Positions 1 through 10,148 of a stretch of 64,000 nt of DNA are shown here, piece after piece (position 1 is the first letter of the stretch; the number at the start of each line of letters is the position of its first letter). Origin of the DNA: a candidate division WOR-3 bacterium (GTDB taxonomy: Bacteria > Hydrothermota > Hydrothermia > Hydrothermales > JAJRUZ01). Location: assembly GCA_039803925.1 (NCBI GenBank), contig JBDRZL010000001.1, forward strand, positions 1 through 64,000, read 5' to 3'. Both the position numbers and the translations under genes were made by a program. Below the pieces are notes generated by a model. The model searched no databases. It saw nothing but the letters and a program-made list of their open reading frames with translations, and was not told where the DNA came from.

Positions 1-541
1 CTTTTTTTAATTTTTTTATAAGTCTTTCAGTAAAATGTAAGGAAGCAGTGGGAGCTGCTATTGAGCCTTCTTTTTTTGCAAATATTGAGTTATAATAGAA
101 TTCATCTTTTTTTAAAGGTTTTCTTTTAATATATGGAGGTAAAGGCATTTTTCCATATTTTTTTAAAAGTTTATCAATATTTCCATTTTCTATTTCAATA
201 ATATAAAATTTGTTTTTCCCAATAACTTTTAATCTAAATTCTCCCACATAAAAATTTTTAACATTTTTTCCTTTTAAAAGGGAATAAAATCTTTTTTCAT
301 CAATTTTTTTAACAAAAAGTGCTTCTACTTTTCCACCTGTATTTTTTCTTCCAAAAATTTTTGCGGGTATTACTTTAGTATTATTTACTATTATGAGGTC
401 TCCTTTTTTTAAAAATTTATGAAGATTATAAAATTTTGAGTGTATAATTTTTTTTTCCTCCAGATTTAAAACCATCAAATTGCAGGAATCTCTGGGTTTT
501 GAAGGAAAAAGGGCAATATTTTTTCCATTTATTTTTATCAT
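1..541 (-). CDS. queA: S-adenosylmethionine:tRNA ribosyltransferase-isomerase, N-terminal part (cut by window edge)
   Basis: QueA transfers and isomerises the ribosyl group of AdoMet onto 7-aminomethyl-deazaguanine in tRNA, making epoxyqueuosine. Reading the minus strand from ATG at 541 gives about 180 of the usual 340 residues. Family landmarks are visible: FPSKPRDSCNLMV near the N-terminus, GDLIIVNNTKVIPAKIFGRK around residues 48-67, then MPLPPYIKR, and APTASLHFTERL at the window edge. The ATG lies 10 bases after a strong -10 box, so the mRNA leader would be only 3-4 bases. The rest of the gene lies outside the window. Confidence 0.93.
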   Translation of the reverse strand, partial: MIKINGKNIALFPSKPRDSCNLMVLNLEEKKIIHSKFYNLHKFLKKGDLIIVNNTKVIPAKIFGRKNTGGKVEALFVKKIDEKRFYSLLKGKNVKNFYVGEFRLKVIGKNKFYIIEIENGNIDKLLKKYGKMPLPPYIKRKPLKKDEFYYNSIFAKKEGSIAAPTASLHFTERLIKKLKK

Positions 542-551
542 AAAGTTATCT

Positions 552-580
552 ATTATAGTTTTAATTTTTATTTATTTCAA
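552..580 (-). promoter_or_regulatory. sigma-70-type promoter of queA
   Basis: On the minus strand TTGAAA (580-575) is followed by exactly 17 bases and TATAAT (557-552). Transcription should begin about 7 bases after the -10 box, 3-4 bases before the queA ATG at 541, giving an almost leaderless mRNA. Confidence 0.7.
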
Positions 581-767
581 ATTCCTGAAATTTAAAGAGT
601 TAATTCCTAAATCAAAGACATTGATAAGAAAAAAAATATTCAAGAGAAAAAATTCAATATGAACTTCATAAATCTTTAAACAAAACTTATGTAAAAGTCT
701 AAAAAGTTATGGTATTCTACAAGCTCTGAAAAATTTTAAAGAGATATTAGATAATGGGAAAAGGTAA

Positions 768-819
768 AAATTCGCAGGCTAAAGCCTGCGCCTACCATTT
801 TTATAAAATCTTTAGATGG
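768..819 (+). repeat. dispersed palindromic repeat, copy 1
   Basis: The core at 773-790 is an 8-bp perfect stem (CGCAGGCT / AGCCTGCG) around two bases, in a GC-rich island within AT-rich DNA. It is followed by CCTACCA and a TTTATAAAATCTTT tail. A second copy in the opposite orientation lies at 914-967 and shares the TAAAG centre, the CTACCAT flank and the TTATAAAA-CTTT tail. Such hairpin repeats are common in intergenic DNA of bacterial genomes; the family name is not known to me. Confidence 0.65.
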
Positions 820-913
820 AAAGCTACACCTTTTAAGGTATAAAGTAACAAGTTTTTTAGGATATTGTTTCTATTATGCCTCATATTATCTTCACCCTTA
901 ATTTTCCAAAAAA

Positions 914-967
914 CAAAGGTTTTATAATTTTATGGTAGCCGCACTCTTTAGGGTGCGCAAAAATTCG
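914..967 (-). repeat. dispersed palindromic repeat, copy 2 (inverted)
   Basis: The core at 940-957 forms a 7-bp stem with one T-G wobble (CGCACTC / GGGTGCG). Read on the minus strand, the flanks match copy 1: CTACCAT directly after the hairpin, then TTATAAAA and CTTT. The two hairpins face each other about 125 bases apart. Confidence 0.6.
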
Positions 968-1100
968 CTTTAAGATTAAAATATGAAAAAGAAAAAAAGT
1001 TTAAAAAATAATGATAGATAGGAAAATTGAGGTGAAAATGCAAAGGATTTTATAAAAAAATGCCTATGTTGAAAGATTTAAAGAGGAATATACAGGAATA

Positions 1101-1150
1101 TTTTGTAGAAGGCACTTCTTGTAATCTTATTGAGCCAGAAAATTTCAATA
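1101..1150 (+). repeat. 50-base direct repeat, left copy
   Basis: Matches 9071-9120 in the same orientation at about 40 of 50 bases, including GCACTTCTTG and AATCTTATTG. The two copies bracket the secreted-protein genes at 1209-9041. Confidence 0.6.
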
Positions 1151-1173
1151 TTTTTATGGTATTCTACAACCTC

Positions 1174-1201
1174 TTGACTTTTTTTTTCAATTCTGTATAA
1201 T
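1174..1201 (+). promoter_or_regulatory. sigma-70-type promoter, leaderless gene 1209
   Basis: TTGACT (1174-1179), 16 bases, TATAAT (1196-1201). The ATG at 1209 is 7 bases after the -10 box, exactly where transcription would begin, and no ribosome-binding site can fit between them. Confidence 0.75.
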
Positions 1202-1208
1202 TAAATAT

Positions 1209-3035
1209 ATGATGATAATAATTTTCAATTTTTACATAAAGGCTTTTTTATCTCCTGATTCAACAAAAGTAAAAATGGATTATTATTTAGAGAAAGGGGT
1301 TTCAAAGATAATGATTGTTTATGAATATAAAGGTAAAAATTATATTGTTGCAGTTCATAAAAACCAGTATCCTTATAAAGAATTAAAAGATGAATTTATA
1401 TGGTTTACAAAAAATAAATGGAGAAAAGAAGGCAATTTAAAGTTTCTTTTATTTTTTGATGATAGATATGAGGAATATTTTATTTCTGGTAAGGATTTAG
1501 AGGTTAAAGATTTTTCAAATAAAAAAGAAAATGAGGAAGAAGGGTTAATAAAGATAGATGAAGGTCATTTTATAAATCCTTCACTTATAAAAAGTTATAA
1601 AGGACCCGATAAATATGCCTGGAGATACTGGAAGTATGATGTTCAGCATACAAATTATTATCCATTCCCTTTATATAAGCCATTTGAATTTAAATGGTCA
1701 CATAAATGGGGAGGAGAGGGGTCTTGGACAACCGAGATTACCCCCTGCGTTTCTCATGGAATTTTTTTTACAGGTAAAGGTGCCCCTGAATGGAATAAGA
1801 TAATGGCAAAGGATATTGAAACAGGAAAAATTATCTGGGAGAAATATTTAACAAGTAATGTATGGAATTGTGCATTAGACCCAAATGATTCAATTCTATT
1901 TGCAGGAACTTCTATTGGTATTCCACCAGAGAGTTTACCAACATTTTTTGCTCTTGATCCTTTTACAGGAAATGAAAAATGGTCAAAACCGATAACGACT
2001 GTGGGAGCTCAACCCATTGTTGTTGATACAATTGTATATGCTCCTGCCCGTGGGTGGGTTGAGCCGATTGGTTATGAAGCAACATTTGCTTATACTTTAA
2101 AAGGAAAACTTTTATGGGGCAAAAAACTTGTAGGTTCTAAGGTGCCTTCTTATTTTGATGGGAAAATTTATGGGATAATGGAAAAAAGGGTTCATGACCC
2201 TGATACTGTTCAAACAAAGGCACTCTGTCGTGATGCATTAACAGGGGATTTGATATGGAAATACATTTTACCCAATAAATCATCAGAGCGCACATCAATA
2301 TATGATAATAGATTATGGTCATTTTTTGGATTCAAACTCCTTGGATTTAATATATTTACAGGTTCTCTTGAGATAGATAAATATATGGAGTATCCTTATA
2401 ATACGCCAATATCAGGATATAATAATGAGATATGGTTTTGTTGGTATAAATGGTCAGGTGATACAATAATTACAGTGGTTTTTTCTTTTGATTCAAAGAC
2501 AGCTCAAAAAAGGCTTGAATTTTATTTAGCACCAAAAGATACAAATGGCGGTGGAGCAGTAGGTCCTGTTTTTACTATTAAAAATACAGGTTGGGTAGCA
2601 AATTGTGATTACATATATGGTTTTAATAGTTTAAATGGAGAGGTATTTGATACAGTTTTGCTTCCTGATGCAAGGTCTCCATGGCCAGCCTGGGGATATC
2701 CTGTTATTTATAAAAATTATTTTTTTGCTGCCCATCATGGATATATTTATTGTTATAAAGCAGATACGATTTTACCGGAAACAACATATATTTATAAATT
2801 TTATCCATATTATAAAGAAGGGAACATTTATGCTTATCTTTCTTTGCCTGAGAGGCAAGACATATATTTAAAAATTTTTGATATAACAGGGAGGAAAGTA
2901 TTAGATCTATATAAAGGTTATTTAGAAAAGGGTGAGCATTTTTTACCATTAAATATTTCTTCAGATGGTGTTTATTTTATTTTTTTAAGAGGTAAAAATA
3001 AGGAAGTTAAAAAATTTTTTAAAATAAGGAGGTGA
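1209..3035 (+). CDS. secreted PQQ/quinoprotein-like beta-propeller protein with C-terminal sorting tail
   Basis: A 608-residue protein of unknown specific function. Residues 1-15 are a short hydrophobic stretch that could be a signal peptide; residues 16-130 have no recognised fold. From about 190 to 530 there are repeated blades with the pattern D-x-x-TG-x-x-x-W (DIETGKIIWEKY, DPFTGNEKWSK, DALTGDLIWKY), typical of PQQ-like propellers. The last 75 residues match the Por/T9SS-type tail: IFDITGRKVLDLYKG, then GVYFIFLRG and a basic end. This suggests export to the cell surface. ATG at 1209 and at 1212 are both possible; the promoter places transcription start at 1209. It is 3 bases upstream of the metallopeptidase and probably co-transcribed with it. 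Confidence 0.75.
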   Translation: MMIIIFNFYIKAFLSPDSTKVKMDYYLEKGVSKIMIVYEYKGKNYIVAVHKNQYPYKELKDEFIWFTKNKWRKEGNLKFLLFFDDRYEEYFISGKDLEVKDFSNKKENEEEGLIKIDEGHFINPSLIKSYKGPDKYAWRYWKYDVQHTNYYPFPLYKPFEFKWSHKWGGEGSWTTEITPCVSHGIFFTGKGAPEWNKIMAKDIETGKIIWEKYLTSNVWNCALDPNDSILFAGTSIGIPPESLPTFFALDPFTGNEKWSKPITTVGAQPIVVDTIVYAPARGWVEPIGYEATFAYTLKGKLLWGKKLVGSKVPSYFDGKIYGIMEKRVHDPDTVQTKALCRDALTGDLIWKYILPNKSSERTSIYDNRLWSFFGFKLLGFNIFTGSLEIDKYMEYPYNTPISGYNNEIWFCWYKWSGDTIITVVFSFDSKTAQKRLEFYLAPKDTNGGGAVGPVFTIKNTGWVANCDYIYGFNSLNGEVFDTVLLPDARSPWPAWGYPVIYKNYFFAAHHGYIYCYKADTILPETTYIYKFYPYYKEGNIYAYLSLPERQDIYLKIFDITGRKVLDLYKGYLEKGEHFLPLNISSDGVYFIFLRGKNKEVKKFFKIRR

Positions 3036-3038
3036 AAT

Positions 3039-6000
3039 ATGAAAGGAAAAATTGGATGTATAGTGAAGTGGTTCATTGTCGTATATCTTTCTTTTCCCTT
3101 ATACGGGAAAAGGGCACCTGACCGTCCACAATGGCTTGTGGAAAAATTAAGGCAGTTTAAACTTGAAAAGGAAGAAGTGAGTCATTTTGGAAACAAAAGT
3201 TTTTATAGTGACGGAAGACTTAGATCATGGGATATGATAGATGAATCAGTGGCTCCCGGTTCACCAGAAGATATAGCTAAAAACTTTTTACTTAAGCATA
3301 TCCGTGAATTTGGTCTTAAAAGTGATTTATCTGATATAAAGCTTTTAAAGGTGGAAGAGTTTATGAAAGATATATATAGAGTTGATTTTTTACAAACTTA
3401 CAAAGGAATACCAGTATATGAGGGTGGTCTTCATGTAATTGTAGAGAAAAATGGTAAAATACGTTCTGCTTTTTCTGGATATCGTGTTATAAAGGAAGAT
3501 TTAGATTTATCTATAAATATTTCAAAGGAGTCTGCAATTCAAACAGTGATAAACTTTTTGCAGATTCAGGGAGAGATAACTTATGGTCCTGTTGCTGAAT
3601 TAATGATTTTCCCTTATAAAGGTCAAAAGCTTGTGTATAGAGTTGAAATTCACACTGATTTCCCCCTTGGTGGCTGGGAGGCTTTTGTTGATGCTAAGAA
3701 TGGTGAGATAATTCTTCTTGGAGATAAATTTGTCTATGCAAATGGTTCAGGATACATATTTAATCCTGACCCTATCACATCAGCGCACACCAATTATGGT
3801 GGTGATTTTGTGGATAATAATGATAATACAAATTCTTCTCTTGATGCGCAGAGATTTTTAATAACATTGAAGGATATATATAAAGATGATAATACCTATT
3901 ACCTCAAAGGTCCTTATGTTCGTATCAAAAATTTAGGTGGATATGATGACCCCATTTATTCTTCTAATGATGGGACATTTTTCTATAACAGATATGATCA
4001 GGCATTCGAAGCAGTGATGGTTTATTATCATATTGACAATTTTCAGAGGTATTTGCAATCCTTGGGGTTTTATTATCATCTCGATACTATTTATGTTGAT
4101 CCTCATGGAACTTATAGTGATAATTCCCGGTATGATGAAAGTCTTGATGCAATTTATTTTGGGGAAGGTGGTGTAGATGATGCAGAGGATGCTGATGTAA
4201 TTATTCATGAATATGGTCATGCTATTGAGGAGCGTGCGATGGGTGGATTTAATTACTATTATTCTGAAGCAGGGGCACTTTCAGAAGGATACAGTGATTA
4301 TATGGCAGGGAGTTATTCAGCACAAATTAATTTTTATCAAAAGGATTGGGTTTTTAACTGGGATGGTCATAACGAATTCTGGCAAGGGAGAGTGCTTAAT
4401 AGCACAAAACATTATCCTGAGGATATGGTGTATGAGCCTCATAAGGATGGTGAAATATGGTCTGCCTGTTTGTGGAAAATCTTTGAGCAATATGGTAGCG
4501 GAATAACAGATCGAATTGTAATGTATAGTTTATGGAATCTCTGGAGTGGTTCAGATTTTAAAGATGCTGCAAAGAAAGTTTTGGATGCAGATTATTGGCT
4601 ATATTGGGGAGAACATATGAACTTTATAAGAAATGTTTTTTATAATAGAGGGATCTTAAGACCACCAACAGTTACAGTAACATTTCCAAATGGAGGAGAA
4701 ACTTTTGTTCAGGGTTCGATAGAGAGAATTAAGTGGTATATTGAGGATTTTGATGGTCTTACTAATTCTATTGAATTATACTATTACTATAATAATAACT
4801 ATTATTTTATAACTGAAATATTTAATCCAACTCAAACTTATTACGATTGGCTTGTTCCTAATATAAGTAGTCCTAATATTGTTAAAATTAAAGTTGTTCT
4901 CAAGGATAAGGCAGATAATGTATTAGCTGAGGATATGAGTAACAATCCATTCACAATTGTTCCTCAACCTCCAACTAATATAACTTATCCCAATGGCGGT
5001 GAAATATTGTTTGTTGGCAGTAATGTTCAAATTACATGGAATAATTCTGACCCGAATAATGTGATAAGTTATGTGAAGCTTTATTATTCAGTAAATGGTG
5101 GTGCAAACTATACACAGATTAACGGAAATATTCAGAATACAGGAAGTTATACCTGGGTTGTTCCAAATATCCAAACAAAACAAGGGAAAATAAAGATAGA
5201 GGCTTATAATATTAGAAATGTATTGATAAAAAAAGATGAAAGTGATGGAACCTTCTGGATTGTGATTCCTCCTCAGGTTCAACTCATCTGGCCAAATAAT
5301 CCTTATATATCAATTGAAGAGGGAAAAACATATTATATCAAATTCATTGGAGAAGCACAGAATGGAATAAAAATTGCGGATGCAGAGTTTTCTCATGATG
5401 GTGGTCAAACATGGACAGATTTGCCAGTTGAAAAATATTATTACCCTTCTCCTACTTATATTAGGGATTCTCTAAGGTGGAATGTTACCCAATCACCTAC
5501 CCGTAATGGGAGAATAAAAGCAATCTTAACTGATACAAATGGTATAAAAGCTTATGACATTTCGGATTATGATTTTGTTTTGAAACCTGCTACTCCCACC
5601 GGAATTAGTGCGGCAATTGTAGAGATTGATATCTGTTCGAATGTAAAAATAATTATTTCCTGGAATGATAACTCTCAATATGAGGATAGTTATATTCTTG
5701 AATATAAAATGGATAATATGGACTGGCAATCTATCTTACTTCCTCCGAATAGAAGAAAAGACACACTATTGGGAGAATACTATCATAATTACTACTTCCG
5801 TGTAAGATGTAAAAAAGGTGATATTTATTCTGATTATTCAAATACAGTTAGTGTTTCTCCAAGAATTCCTGACCCTTCAAATTTAACACTTGAAACTTCT
5901 TATCCATGGAACAATGTAAAGGTAAGTTTTATGGATAATTCTAAATGTGAGGATAAATTTTTAATAAAAAGAAAAGAGATTATAAGTGGGACTGAATATA

Positions 6001-7154
6001 CATTTGAAATTCCTGGTGATTTAGATATTAATGAAAATGAAGTATTTTTTGATAATGTTTCACCTTTTAAAGATTATGAATATAAGGTTTATGGGGTTTA
6101 TGGATCAAAAAATACTTCTATTCTCTGTGATACAGTAACAACTTCTCCAATATTTAGTGGAACAACAGGTGATTATTACAGTCATAACATACAGAGGGCA
6201 AATAATGGGACACTTCATATGGCATATAAGTATGATAAAGGGGATTCACTTTTTGTTATTCATGGTTTCAGTAATGATGAAGGGCTTTCATGGAATATTC
6301 AGAGAATTTTTAAAAGAGATAGAACCCTTAATCGTGAAATTAAAGATGTATCAATAGTTTTATCCTCAGATGGAAAACCTATCATAGTTTTTGTTGAAGA
6401 TGAAGTTTATTTTGGAAATAGATCACGCTTATGGTATTTTCATAAAATTGGAAATTCATGGTATTCAAGTAAATTGGACACAATCCACCTTACAAAAGAT
6501 GCGAGAGTTATGGAACCATCTGTTTTAATGAAAAATGATACAGTCCATATTATATATGGGAAAATGATAAATCCCCAGGGGACTCCTATTGATTCCTTAT
6601 ATTACTCAAAATTTTATTATTTAACACCTTCTTCATTTTCTTCTGCAAAGGAATTTATAGATATATTTCAAAACATTTATATTTCAAACAGGGGTTCGTT
6701 TGTTTTTTATAAGGATACATTACATCTTGTGGTTCAGGAAAAGAGGGAGGAGAATAGGATAGTTAAACATTATAAAAGAAAAAATAGGGGAGTATGGGTT
6801 ATTGTTGAAAGTTTTGTTCCGCAGGAGGATGATCCTGCTTTAAGTGTGTTAGGAGATAATTTATTACTTTTTACAAATACTAGTAATGGGATTAAAGTGT
6901 ATTTACTGAATGAATATTGGTATTGGGAAGATGTTACTTATATACCTCAGAAGAAGATGGATTATGTTTATTTAGGGGGAATAAATACTTATATTTTCTG
7001 TGAGGATTTTAATGGAAGAGGTTACTTATTAAGATTTTTTAAAGGATCATCAGGAATTGGATATGGAGTAAGGGTTATCTCTGCTTATGGGAAGGAGAAA
7101 GGATTTCATGGTGTTATTTGGAGGGGAGGGTTAATTGAAAAGGTGAATATTTGA
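3039..7154 (+). CDS. secreted M4/M36-like zinc metallopeptidase with Ig-like and Fn3 domains (ends at an in-frame TGA)
   Basis: A 1,371-residue secreted peptidase preceded by a strong ribosome-binding site (AGGAGGTGA) after the gene at 1209. Order of parts: signal-like segment (residues 10-24); FTP/PepSY-type propeptide (about 85-230); zinc protease domain with HEYGHAIEE at about 390 and the downstream GALSEGYSDYMAG holding the third ligand Glu; two PNGGE repeats (about 550-720); two fibronectin-III-like domains (about 850-1030); then a BNR/sialidase-like repeat region. It stops at TGA 7152-7154 without a sorting tail, but the same frame continues open to 9041, where a sorting tail is present. 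The gene is therefore probably interrupted, or read through. Its substrate is unknown. Confidence 0.8.
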   Translation: MKGKIGCIVKWFIVVYLSFPLYGKRAPDRPQWLVEKLRQFKLEKEEVSHFGNKSFYSDGRLRSWDMIDESVAPGSPEDIAKNFLLKHIREFGLKSDLSDIKLLKVEEFMKDIYRVDFLQTYKGIPVYEGGLHVIVEKNGKIRSAFSGYRVIKEDLDLSINISKESAIQTVINFLQIQGEITYGPVAELMIFPYKGQKLVYRVEIHTDFPLGGWEAFVDAKNGEIILLGDKFVYANGSGYIFNPDPITSAHTNYGGDFVDNNDNTNSSLDAQRFLITLKDIYKDDNTYYLKGPYVRIKNLGGYDDPIYSSNDGTFFYNRYDQAFEAVMVYYHIDNFQRYLQSLGFYYHLDTIYVDPHGTYSDNSRYDESLDAIYFGEGGVDDAEDADVIIHEYGHAIEERAMGGFNYYYSEAGALSEGYSDYMAGSYSAQINFYQKDWVFNWDGHNEFWQGRVLNSTKHYPEDMVYEPHKDGEIWSACLWKIFEQYGSGITDRIVMYSLWNLWSGSDFKDAAKKVLDADYWLYWGEHMNFIRNVFYNRGILRPPTVTVTFPNGGETFVQGSIERIKWYIEDFDGLTNSIELYYYYNNNYYFITEIFNPTQTYYDWLVPNISSPNIVKIKVVLKDKADNVLAEDMSNNPFTIVPQPPTNITYPNGGEILFVGSNVQITWNNSDPNNVISYVKLYYSVNGGANYTQINGNIQNTGSYTWVVPNIQTKQGKIKIEAYNIRNVLIKKDESDGTFWIVIPPQVQLIWPNNPYISIEEGKTYYIKFIGEAQNGIKIADAEFSHDGGQTWTDLPVEKYYYPSPTYIRDSLRWNVTQSPTRNGRIKAILTDTNGIKAYDISDYDFVLKPATPTGISAAIVEIDICSNVKIIISWNDNSQYEDSYILEYKMDNMDWQSILLPPNRRKDTLLGEYYHNYYFRVRCKKGDIYSDYSNTVSVSPRIPDPSNLTLETSYPWNNVKVSFMDNSKCEDKFLIKRKEIISGTEYTFEIPGDLDINENEVFFDNVSPFKDYEYKVYGVYGSKNTSILCDTVTTSPIFSGTTGDYYSHNIQRANNGTLHMAYKYDKGDSLFVIHGFSNDEGLSWNIQRIFKRDRTLNREIKDVSIVLSSDGKPIIVFVEDEVYFGNRSRLWYFHKIGNSWYSSKLDTIHLTKDARVMEPSVLMKNDTVHIIYGKMINPQGTPIDSLYYSKFYYLTPSSFSSAKEFIDIFQNIYISNRGSFVFYKDTLHLVVQEKREENRIVKHYKRKNRGVWVIVESFVPQEDDPALSVLGDNLLLFTNTSNGIKVYLLNEYWYWEDVTYIPQKKMDYVYLGGINTYIFCEDFNGRGYLLRFFKGSSGIGYGVRVISAYGKEKGFHGVIWRGGLIEKVNI

Positions 7155-7223
7155 TTTGTTAATACAAGAAATAAAAGTAAGGTTGTTTATAAGAAATTCT
7201 CTACCTATTTTTATGATGTTGAT

Positions 7224-9041
7224 ATGAGGGAAATTTCTCAAAAAATAGACCTTAATAATATTCCACCAAATAATGCAAGGAGAATTTTAAAGGATGGGTT
7301 TGGAAATATTTATTTTCTTTATTCTAAGAATGATTCTGTATACGATTATATTTTGAATAAAAATCAGAAATTATTCATAGGGAAAGGTAAAAATCCTGCA
7401 ATTTCACAGGATGAGTTTAAAAATCTATACTGCATCTTTTCTTATAATGATACAACATTTCTTGAGGAATTGAGATTTTCTAAATTTAATGGTAATAAGT
7501 GGGAAAATCCTTTAACAATTTTTAAAAATGAGGGAACATATTATTGGGGTATTGGTGCTCCTTGTTTTGAGATTTTTAATAACACAGGATATTTAACATG
7601 GGAGACAAAATGGGGACCTACTCATCATCCTCCTCCAGGATATTATTTAACTGATATAAGAATATGGGGAGGAAATCTTTTAATGCTTGGAAAATTTGAT
7701 TTAAGGAACCTCCATAGTTTTAATATATTTTTCACTCATTTTGTAAATACCTTAAAAGGGATTAAGGGAGATACCACCTGGCCTCCGAGGGAGACTCTCA
7801 GGGTTCATCCTAAAACCTTCTATGATTCCATTGTTCCTCTTTTAATATCGCCATCTTTAACTGTTGATTATTCAAATAGAATTCATCTTTTATGGGAGGG
7901 AGCAAATGATATATTAAGGTATTATTGTCTTTCACCAGATACAATTAAGCACCTTATTACATTAAAAGAGCCTGGCAAAGCTATTTATTTTGATCCATAT
8001 ATTACAAAATCAAATTCATTTATTAATCTTGTTTATGTTAAAAACAGGGAAGGGGAAGGTTCAAAGGTTTTATCAAGGTATACATTTCAGGGATTTAATG
8101 TTCTTTCAAATCCAAAGGAAGTTTATTCATTAGAAGCTTTTAATTTATTTCAACCTTTTATTGATAAAAATTATATAACATTTGTGAAGAATGAAGGTTC
8201 ATTGAATTATCTTGTGTATGGTGAAAATGTAGCACCTTTTGATGAGAATATTCTTTTTTCCTATTATTCTATTCTTTCACCGCAATTTTTATCAGATGGT
8301 AAATATCTTCATTTTGTTTTTTATGCGGGTGATTCTTTGTATAGGATTTATTATATAAAGGTTGAGCTTCAAGAGGAGCCTCCGATTATTTCCCTTGATT
8401 TTGGAAATAAAACGCCTGATATAACAAATGTTTACAGGGAAGGTTATATTTCTTTTGGGCCGGAGTATTATAAGAATGTTGATTATGGGGATTCGCTTAT
8501 ATATGAAATTCCACTTGTTTTAGAGGGTAAGTTTAAGATAAGGTTTGAAGGTTATTCTGGTAGGGAAGTAGATGAAAAAATTTATGTTAATAATATACCT
8601 CTTGGAGTCTGGCATATTGAGGCAAATGAGTATTCTGTTTTTGAGAAAAGGATTCCTGAGAGAGCTGTGACTGATTTATTGAGAATAAAGGTTAAAAGAC
8701 AGGGGCGTGATGGAAAAGCAGTTCTTGGTGCATTGAAAGTTTATGTATGGAAGGAAGGGGAGGGAGGTCCGCAGGATATTGATGTGGAGAACAAAATGCA
8801 GTTTGATGTCAGCTTTCCGACATTGCTGAAAGAAAATTCATTTTTACTTATTGTTCCAGAAAAAGGATTTGTTAAAATATGTATCTATGATATAAGTGGT
8901 AGAAAAAGGTTTGATTTAAAAAAGGTTTTTGATAAAGGATTTCACAGTGTTTCTATTCCTGAACTTTCAAAAGGTATTTATTTTATAAAGGCTGAATACA
9001 ATAATGAAAAGAAAATAAAAAAGATTTTGAGGATAAAATAG
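7224..9041 (+). pseudogene. in-frame C-terminal continuation of the metallopeptidase, carrying the sorting tail
   Basis: This 605-residue frame is in the same phase as the gene at 3039. Only the TGA at 7152-7154 separates them, and the 23 codons from 7155 to the ATG at 7224 are open. No promoter or ribosome-binding site precedes 7224. The content continues a beta-rich repeat region, and the end carries the Por/T9SS-type tail (ICIYDISGRKRFDLKKVF, then GIYFIKAEY and a basic end). With a sense codon at 7152 the two pieces would form one protein of 2,000 residues. A TGG-to-TGA nonsense change is the simplest explanation; translation of this part on its own cannot be excluded. Confidence 0.7.
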
Positions 9042-9070
9042 TAATTTAATTTTTTAAAAAGGTTTTGAGA

Positions 9071-9120
9071 AGTTGTGGAAAGCACTTCTTGAAATCTTAT
9101 TGGACCAGGGAAATTCAATA
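9071..9120 (+). repeat. 50-base direct repeat, right copy
   Basis: Degenerate copy of 1101-1150, about 80% identical by eye, lying just after the secreted-protein genes and just before the promoter of the GTPase gene. Confidence 0.6.
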
Positions 9121-9131
9121 TAAATATTGAA
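9114..9131 (+). promoter_or_regulatory. 18-bp palindrome, operator candidate
   Basis: TTCAATAT-AA-ATATTGAA is a perfect inverted repeat with a 2-base centre. It overlaps the -35 box (9127-9132) of the GTPase gene, a classical position for a dimeric repressor. No regulator gene is adjacent. Confidence 0.4.
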
Positions 9132-9156
9132 ATTAATAAATTTTTTCCTTTAAATT
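9127..9156 (+). promoter_or_regulatory. promoter of the TGS-GTPase gene
   Basis: TTGAAA (9127-9132), 18 bases, TAAATT (9151-9156). The ATG at 9162 follows 5 bases after the -10 box, so the transcript is expected to be leaderless. Confidence 0.5.
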
Positions 9157-9161
9157 ATTTA

Positions 9162-10148
9162 ATGCCTGCGAATTTAACTCCTGAATATCTTGCTGCAGAA
9201 AAAAAATATAGGGAAGCAAAGACCCTTGAAGAAAAGCTCTTAGCTTTGAAAGAAATGTGGGCAACTCTGCCAAAACACAAAGGAACTGATAAACTGCAGG
9301 CTGATATCAAAAGAAGAATATCCCAGATTAAGAAAGAAATAGAAGAGGAAAAACAAAGGAGAAAAAGAGGCGCACCTTCTTTTCTTTTCCCTGAAAAAGA
9401 AGGAGCAGGACAAGTTGTTTTATTTGGGAAACCAAACTCTGGAAAATCCTCAATTCTTAAATTCTTAACAAATGCAAATCCAGAAATAGCACCTTATCCT
9501 TTTACAACAGTTTTACCTGTAGTTGGAATGATGCCTTATGAGGATATTCAAATACAGATTGTAGATTTACCACCCTTTTTGATCTCAAAGTATCAATGGT
9601 GGCAGAGAGAGATTGTAAGAAATGCTGATTCTATTATGGCTGTTCTTGATGGTTCAAAGGATGACCTTATTGATGATTTTTTAGAGTTAAAAGAAATTCT
9701 CAATGAGATTAAAATTGAATTTTCAGAGAAAGATGAATACTCTTTTGAGGGAATTATTAAAAAAAGAGGCTTTTTTGTAGTTAATAAAATTGATACAGAA
9801 GGAGGAGGGGAGAGATTTAAAATTTTGAAAGAAAGTTTTCCAAAAGAAGTAATTTTACCCTTTTCATCTTTGACTGGTTTTGGTTTAGAGGATTTAAAAA
9901 GAGAAATTTTTAAATCATTGAAAATAATAAGAATTTATACAAAGGAACCAGGAAAAGAGCCTGATATGAAAGATCCAATGATACTTGAAGAAGGTAGTTC
10001 AGTAATGGATGCTGCAGAGGAGTTACATAAGGATTTTGCCAAAAATTTGAAATATGCGAGGGTGTGGGGTTCTTCAAAATTTCCTGGTCAGAGGGTGGAA
10101 AGAAATTATATACTTAAAGATAAAGATATTGTGGAATTTCATATTTAA
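9162..10148 (+). CDS. Obg/DRG-type GTPase with C-terminal TGS domain
   Basis: A 328-residue GTPase of the TRAFAC Obg/DRG group. Residues 1-75 are a charged helical, coiled-coil-like region. The G domain follows: GKPNSGKSS (Walker A, about 89), a switch region with TT after APYPF, VDLPP (G3), and VNKID (G4, about 209). The last 75 residues form a TGS-like domain ending DKDIVEFHI. DRG-type proteins bind GTP and act with ribosomes or RNA; the exact role of this one is unknown. The stop overlaps the ThiI start by one base (TAATG), so the two are probably co-translated. Confidence 0.8.
   Translation: MPANLTPEYLAAEKKYREAKTLEEKLLALKEMWATLPKHKGTDKLQADIKRRISQIKKEIEEEKQRRKRGAPSFLFPEKEGAGQVVLFGKPNSGKSSILKFLTNANPEIAPYPFTTVLPVVGMMPYEDIQIQIVDLPPFLISKYQWWQREIVRNADSIMAVLDGSKDDLIDDFLELKEILNEIKIEFSEKDEYSFEGIIKKRGFFVVNKIDTEGGGERFKILKESFPKEVILPFSSLTGFGLEDLKREIFKSLKIIRIYTKEPGKEPDMKDPMILEEGSSVMDAAEELHKDFAKNLKYARVWGSSKFPGQRVERNYILKDKDIVEFHI

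What the first reader, a model, noticed from the sequence alone, without database searches (positions are those of the whole stretch)
3039..9041. Metallopeptidase of about 2,000 codons interrupted by one in-frame TGA that removes its sorting tail
The frames 3039-7154 and 7224-9041 are in the same phase, and the 23 codons between the TGA (7152-7154) and ATG 7224 are open. The T9SS-like sorting tail exists only after the TGA, whereas the neighbouring secreted protein at 1209 ends with its own tail. A TGG-to-TGA nonsense mutation is the simplest cause; regulated readthrough switching between released and surface-sorted forms is a more speculative option. TGA is a normal stop elsewhere (rsmI, eno), so a changed genetic code is unlikely.
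Basis: seen in the sequence. Interest (0 to 1): 0.6.

Follow-up and report, generated by a model that had tools for sequence, protein, structure and literature searches.

The report
Recently truncated secreted protease, shuffled gene
A secreted protein-cutting enzyme has lost its export tail through one recent point mutation, in a stretch of DNA where enzyme heads and tails are swapped between related bacteria and where every copy of this tail found is broken; this is ordinary gene decay, with an unusual amount of shuffling around it.

Summary
Positions 3039-9041 form one frame of 2001 codons with a single internal stop, TGA at 7152-7154. An M36-type metallopeptidase head lies before it and a Por_Secre (type IX) sorting tail after it. 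A same-genus genome (G001) has the same stretch from about 5616 to 9041 at about 91% DNA identity, with GGA (Gly) at that codon. The stop is therefore derived, by GGA to TGA rather than the proposed TGG to TGA. The downstream 628 codons diverged under purifying selection (dN/dS 0.23) and carry no other lesion, so the loss is recent. Readthrough is unlikely: prfB is present, no SelB or tRNA-Sec passes its cut-off, the next base is T, and ATG 7224 has no Shine-Dalgarno. The locus is also shuffled: it is an island absent from a third species, and in G001 the same stalk and tail carry a C25 (gingipain-type) head, broken by other lesions. Further copies behind other heads are broken too. An intact M36 paralogue with its tail persists. 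Best reading: recent decay of one copy of a shuffled, multi-head type IX cargo family. No reads were available, so a consensus error at 7152 is not excluded.

The parts
2..541 (-). queA homologue (cut by the contig start), left border of the island
   Evidence: Orthologues in G001 (93% aa, L074) and G002 (71% aa, L069); the name queA rests on my reading of the sequence, no profile was run
1095..1200 (+). Copy of a dispersed repeat of about 75-100 bp at the left edge of the gene cluster
   Evidence: 28 matches in G000, 43 in G001, none in G002 or G003
1209..3035 (+). Secreted protein, PQQ_2-like propeller with its own sorting-type tail
   Evidence: Weak PF13360; tail match at 2835-3026; dS to G001 only 0.047
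3039..7154 (+). Truncated gene as it stands: signal peptide, FTP/PepSY propeptide, M36 peptidase head, Ig-type stalk, FN3, first part of a repeat-rich domain; 1371 aa
   Evidence: HEYGH zinc motif in the translation; SD AGGAGGTG before ATG 3039; signal peptide judged by eye
5600..5805 (+). Recombination junction inside the FN3 stalk: 25% DNA divergence from G001 before 5805, 3% after
   Evidence: Change point, log-likelihood ratio 35.9 against a maximum of 9.7 in 1000 shuffles
7152..7154 (+). Derived premature stop TGA; GGA (Gly) in the sister species
   Evidence: Codon alignment to G001
7155..9041 (+). Now untranslated remainder: rest of the repeat-rich domain, an accessory C-terminal domain (REGYIS...) and the Por_Secre sorting tail
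   Evidence: PF18962; 89% aa identity to G001 over 628 aa; dN/dS 0.23
9042..9161 (+). Intergenic stretch with a degenerate copy of the 1095-1200 repeat, right edge of the island
   Evidence: Sequence printed; the resemblance to 1095-1200 was judged by eye
9162..10148 (+). GTPase (MMR_HSR1 + TGS), right border of the island, conserved in all relatives checked

Best explanation
The gene is a chimeric, modular type IX cargo gene that has very recently been truncated by one point mutation (GGA to TGA, Gly to stop) inside its C-terminal half. As it stands it would make a 1371-residue secreted M36-type metallopeptidase ending inside a repeat-rich domain and lacking the sorting tail. [quoted passage not shown] It is one copy of a small family in which the same FN3, repeat domain and tail are joined to different enzyme heads. 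In the copies examined the tail region is broken in different ways, so this looks like ongoing gene decay and shuffling, tolerated because an intact M36 paralogue with its tail remains. Shown: the stop, its derived state, recency by dN/dS, the head difference between species, the broken copies, the intact paralogue, normal TGA termination machinery. Inferred: loss of surface sorting, and redundancy as the reason the loss is tolerated.
For: Single stop in 2001 codons. GGA at the codon in G001. G001's own copy has GAA to TAA at the codon matching 6006 and a 1-base deletion at 6978. dN/dS 0.23 after the stop, nonsynonymous against synonymous p = 4e-18. About 13 further stops would be expected in 628 codons had the lineage been unconstrained since divergence; none is seen. 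Other tail copies are broken: G001 C4, lipase head, frameshift; G001 C15, propeller head, another GGA to TGA, then a deletion; G000 C12, TCA to TAA, then a deletion. Intact M36 paralogues with tail in three species. prfB over cut-off; no SelB over cut-off; no tRNA-Sec over cut-off in G000, and the seven candidates fetched read as ordinary tRNAs. SprA over cut-off in G000, so a type IX pathway probably exists. Stop followed by T; +4U lowers readthrough (PMC5289835).
Against: No reads were available, so an assembly or consensus error, or a strain polymorphism at 7152, is not excluded. Only one same-genus genome carries the stretch, and it is itself broken, so no intact direct orthologue was seen. 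Broken copies in G001 and L094 could partly be assembly errors: several are single-base indels in homopolymers, and L094 has 1.3x coverage.
Confidence: 0.77

Rival explanations
1. The TGA is a consensus or assembly error, or a minority allele, in a gene that is intact in the population.
For: Everything downstream is intact and selected; the sister has GGA, one base away; the window belongs to a 29-contig assembly.
Against: Substitution errors in a consensus are rarer than indel errors; related copies carry independent lesions, so real decay is plausible here.
Confidence: 0.13
2. Regulated stop-codon readthrough (or UGA recoding) switches between a released and a surface-sorted protease.
For: The downstream frame is intact with dN/dS 0.23; the tail alone would decide the fate of the protein.
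Against: Derived stop with a Gly codon in the sister; TGAT context; no SelB or tRNA-Sec over cut-off; RF2 present; the sister's copy is broken at other places; low dN/dS is equally explained by a young stop.
Confidence: 0.03
3. Two separate genes: a 1371-aa metallopeptidase and an independent 605-aa protein starting at ATG 7224.
For: An ATG is present in frame, 23 codons on.
Against: No Shine-Dalgarno before 7224, while 3039 has AGGAGGTG; no signal peptide in MREISQKIDL...; promoter-like sites no more frequent than in shuffles; continuous through this point in G001.
Confidence: 0.01
4. Tail loss is selected rather than neutral: cells repeatedly shed the sorting tail from different enzyme heads.
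For: Every examined copy of this stalk and tail, behind M36, C25, lipase and propeller heads, is interrupted after the head, while unrelated tailed proteins in G000 have long open frames.
Against: Few copies; two are further eroded by deletions as expected of neutral decay; type IX cargo without its tail is not expected to be exported (PMC4560394 abstract).
Confidence: 0.06

Closest known systems
Gingipain / haemagglutinin genes rgpA, kgp and hagA of Porphyromonas gingivalis
   Same: Type IX cargo built of different heads and shared C-terminal modules; domain rearrangement and allelic exchange between strains (PMC5266723); deletion and truncation at the hagA-kgp locus in spontaneous variants (PMC9328147). 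The G001 head at this locus is of the same peptidase family, C25.
   Different: Here the shared part is an FN3, repeat domain and tail, the heads include M36, C25 and lipase, the organism is another lineage, and the copies seen are broken.
Bacterial M36 (fungalysin-like) metallopeptidases with a Por_Secre tail
   Same: FTP propeptide, M36 domain, C-terminal sorting domain; the intact 1095-aa paralogue in the same genome has all three.
   Different: About 43% identical in the head, with a different stalk; the window copy is truncated before the tail.

Membership tests
M36 metallopeptidase (PF02128) | Profile match above the curated cut-off | tested here: met
   33.5 bits against 23.3, residues 382-484; the match covers part of the profile only
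M36 metallopeptidase (PF02128) | HExxH zinc motif and FTP propeptide | tested here: met
   HEYGH in the translation; PF07504 at 23.3 bits against 21
M36 metallopeptidase (PF02128) | Peptidase activity | not testable with these tools
   Needs protein expression
Type IX secretion cargo | C-terminal sorting domain on the translated product | tested here: not met
   PF18962 lies only after the TGA, so the ancestral gene qualifies but the product as encoded now does not
Type IX secretion cargo | Type IX machinery in the genome | tested here: met
   SprA over cut-off in G000, 298.6 bits joined against 200; other components not searched
Stop-codon readthrough or selenoprotein gene | Recoding machinery | tested here: not met
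   No SelB over cut-off; no tRNA-Sec over cut-off in G000; the seven candidates fetched are ordinary tRNAs. Ordinary near-cognate readthrough needs no such machinery and is not tested by this
Stop-codon readthrough or selenoprotein gene | Stop conserved among relatives | tested here: not met
   GGA in G001; one relative only
Pseudogene (truncated) | Derived disabling lesion relative to a homologue | tested here: met
   GGA to TGA
Pseudogene (truncated) | Lesion present in the reads | not testable with these tools
   No reads held

The most novel reading that the evidence does not exclude
A shared export-tail module circulates among unrelated secreted enzymes in this genus by recombination in the FN3 stalk, and cells repeatedly and adaptively switch the tail off by point mutations or frameshifts, changing where each enzyme ends up.
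Probability: 0.06. Interest if true: 0.6.

Novelty: new member of a known kind. Interest (0 to 1): 0.3.

Why it matters
As a single nonsense mutation it matters little. In context it shows, outside the well-studied type IX organisms, that secreted-enzyme loci are shuffled by swapping heads onto a common stalk and tail, and that such loci decay repeatedly. If strain-level data showed truncated and intact tails segregating together, it would be a natural test of whether losing the export tail is neutral or useful.

Tried and rejected
Changed code or recoding of UGA: rejected (16 of 51 window ORFs end in TGA; prfB present; no SelB; no tRNA-Sec over cut-off). Independent second gene: rejected. More orthologues: two scans of one-genome-per-species contigs gave no close relative and one partial relative on a 1.3x contig labelled Omnitrophota, itself frameshifted; the class search covered only 40 genomes; a scan of viral contigs gave nothing. 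Structure prediction of the region across the stop failed (mean pLDDT 34.7, five sequences), so whether the stop lies inside a folded domain is unproven and no fold search was made. Alignment A2 misaligned the fragments and was not used.

Full report
WHAT IS THERE. Window 3039-9041 translates as 2001 codons with one internal stop, TGA at 7152-7154, and a TAG at 9039-9041. The chance of 628 open codons after the TGA at this base composition is about 10^-25. Before the stop are an FTP/PepSY propeptide and an M36 peptidase domain, with a Big_7-type domain and a weak FN3 match in the stalk; after it is the only Por_Secre sorting tail, PF18962 at 27.4 bits against a cut-off of 27.

WHAT THE CODON WAS. 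Among 60 relatives, one same-genus genome, G001, encodes the part after the stop at 89% amino-acid identity over 628 residues. Aligned codon by codon, G001 has GGA (Gly) where the window has TGA. The paralogue on G001 contig C4, about 45% identical, is also open in this neighbourhood. The simplest history is GGA to TGA in the window's lineage. The proposed TGG parent is wrong, but the proposed kind of event is right.

HOW OLD. Between the two genomes the stretch after the stop has dS 0.24, dN 0.056 and dN/dS 0.23, far from neutral (Fisher p = 4e-18). The conserved GTPase next door has 0.06. If the 628 codons had been free since the split, about 13 new stops would be expected along one lineage; there are none beyond the TGA itself. 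The stop is therefore young compared with the split of the two genomes. A young stop also explains the low dN/dS without readthrough.

WHY NOT READTHROUGH OR A SECOND GENE. G000 carries prfB above the curated cut-off. It has no SelB above cut-off; the best match has the length of EF-Tu. It has no tRNA-Sec above cut-off, and the seven candidates that I fetched contain ordinary Leu, Ser, Arg, His and Cys tRNAs. The base after TGA is T, and +4U is associated with reduced readthrough in E. coli (PMC5289835). Sixteen of 51 window ORFs of 150 aa or more end in TGA. ATG 7224 has no Shine-Dalgarno, whereas ATG 3039 has AGGAGGTG, and promoter-like matches in the region are no more frequent than in shuffles.

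THE LOCUS IS SHUFFLED. In G001 the same stalk and tail (from about window 5616 on) follow a C25 peptidase head with its propeptide (PF01364, 217 bits), not an M36 head. G001 keeps only the first 117 bases of the M36 gene, 97% identical, after its orthologue of the 1209 gene. Divergence between the two genomes drops from 25% to 3% at 5805, inside the FN3 region (log-likelihood ratio 35.9; maximum 9.7 in 1000 shuffles), which marks a recombination junction. The 1209 gene has dS of only 0.047 against 0.29 in the GTPase (p = 2e-11), so parts of the locus were exchanged recently. Both genomes hold this cluster between queA and the GTPase gene; in a third species of the genus, G002, those two genes are adjacent with 195 bases between them. 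A dispersed repeat of about 75-100 bases borders the cluster and lies at the rearranged point in G001; it has 28 matches in G000, 43 in G001 and none in G002 or G003. One reading, not proven, is that an ancestral row of secreted-protein genes was shortened differently in the two lineages by recombination between repeats or between FN3 domains.

ALL COPIES SEEN ARE BROKEN. G001's copy at this locus has GAA to TAA at the codon matching 6006 and a one-base deletion at 6978. G001 contig C4 has a lipase-type head with the same stalk and tail, interrupted by frameshifts and an assembly gap. G001 contig C15 has a propeller head and then GGA to TGA just after FN3, followed by an internal deletion. G000 contig C12 has TCA to TAA just after FN3 and then a deletion into the tail. 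A contig labelled Omnitrophota (L094) has a lipase head and a frameshift, but at 1.3x coverage. Some of these are homopolymer indels and may be assembly errors. Other tailed proteins in G000 have long open frames, among them an M36 paralogue of 1095 residues with a complete tail that is also intact in G001 and G002.

MECHANISM AND COMPARISON. Most likely this is recent truncation of one member of a modular type IX cargo family. SprA is present, so the tail probably has a pathway to use; in P. [quoted passage not shown] That last step is inferred. The nearest known behaviour is the domain rearrangement and deletion among gingipain and haemagglutinin genes of P. gingivalis (PMC5266723, PMC9328147). 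The finding is thus a new example of a known kind.

LIMITS. No reads were available; only one same-genus genome shares the stretch; the structure prediction was unusable; the degenerate repeat copy at 9042-9161 and the signal peptide were recognised by eye.

Noticed in passing
window 1095-1200: Dispersed repeat of about 75-100 bp with 28 matches in G000 and 43 in G001, none in G002 or G003; it borders the island and lies at the rearrangement point in G001.
   Followed up: partly
window 542-9161: Island of secreted-protein genes between queA and a TGS-domain GTPase; in G002 (L069 14093-14289) the two flanking genes are adjacent with 195 bp between them.
   Followed up: partly
window 1209-3035; G001 orthologue L031 8948-10609 (-): In G001 the orthologue has lost one T of a T7 run (window 2720), which removes its sorting-type tail as well; it could be an assembly error.
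   Followed up: partly
L072 3590-3800 (-): A second independent GGA to TGA change, just after the FN3 domain of another copy of the tail family, on G001 contig C15.
   Followed up: partly
L095 1-180; L096 5030-5213; L032 9060-9163: Three G001 contigs end in near-identical copies of the sorting-tail 3' end, so this tail is a repeat that breaks the G001 assembly.
   Followed up: partly
L094: A 5-kb contig labelled Candidatus Omnitrophota carries a lipase head with a related stalk and tail, with 1.3x coverage and a frameshift; possibly mis-binned.
   Followed up: no
window 760-810: Short palindromic sequence (GCAGGCTAAAGCCTGC) of the kind found in small dispersed repeats.
   Followed up: no
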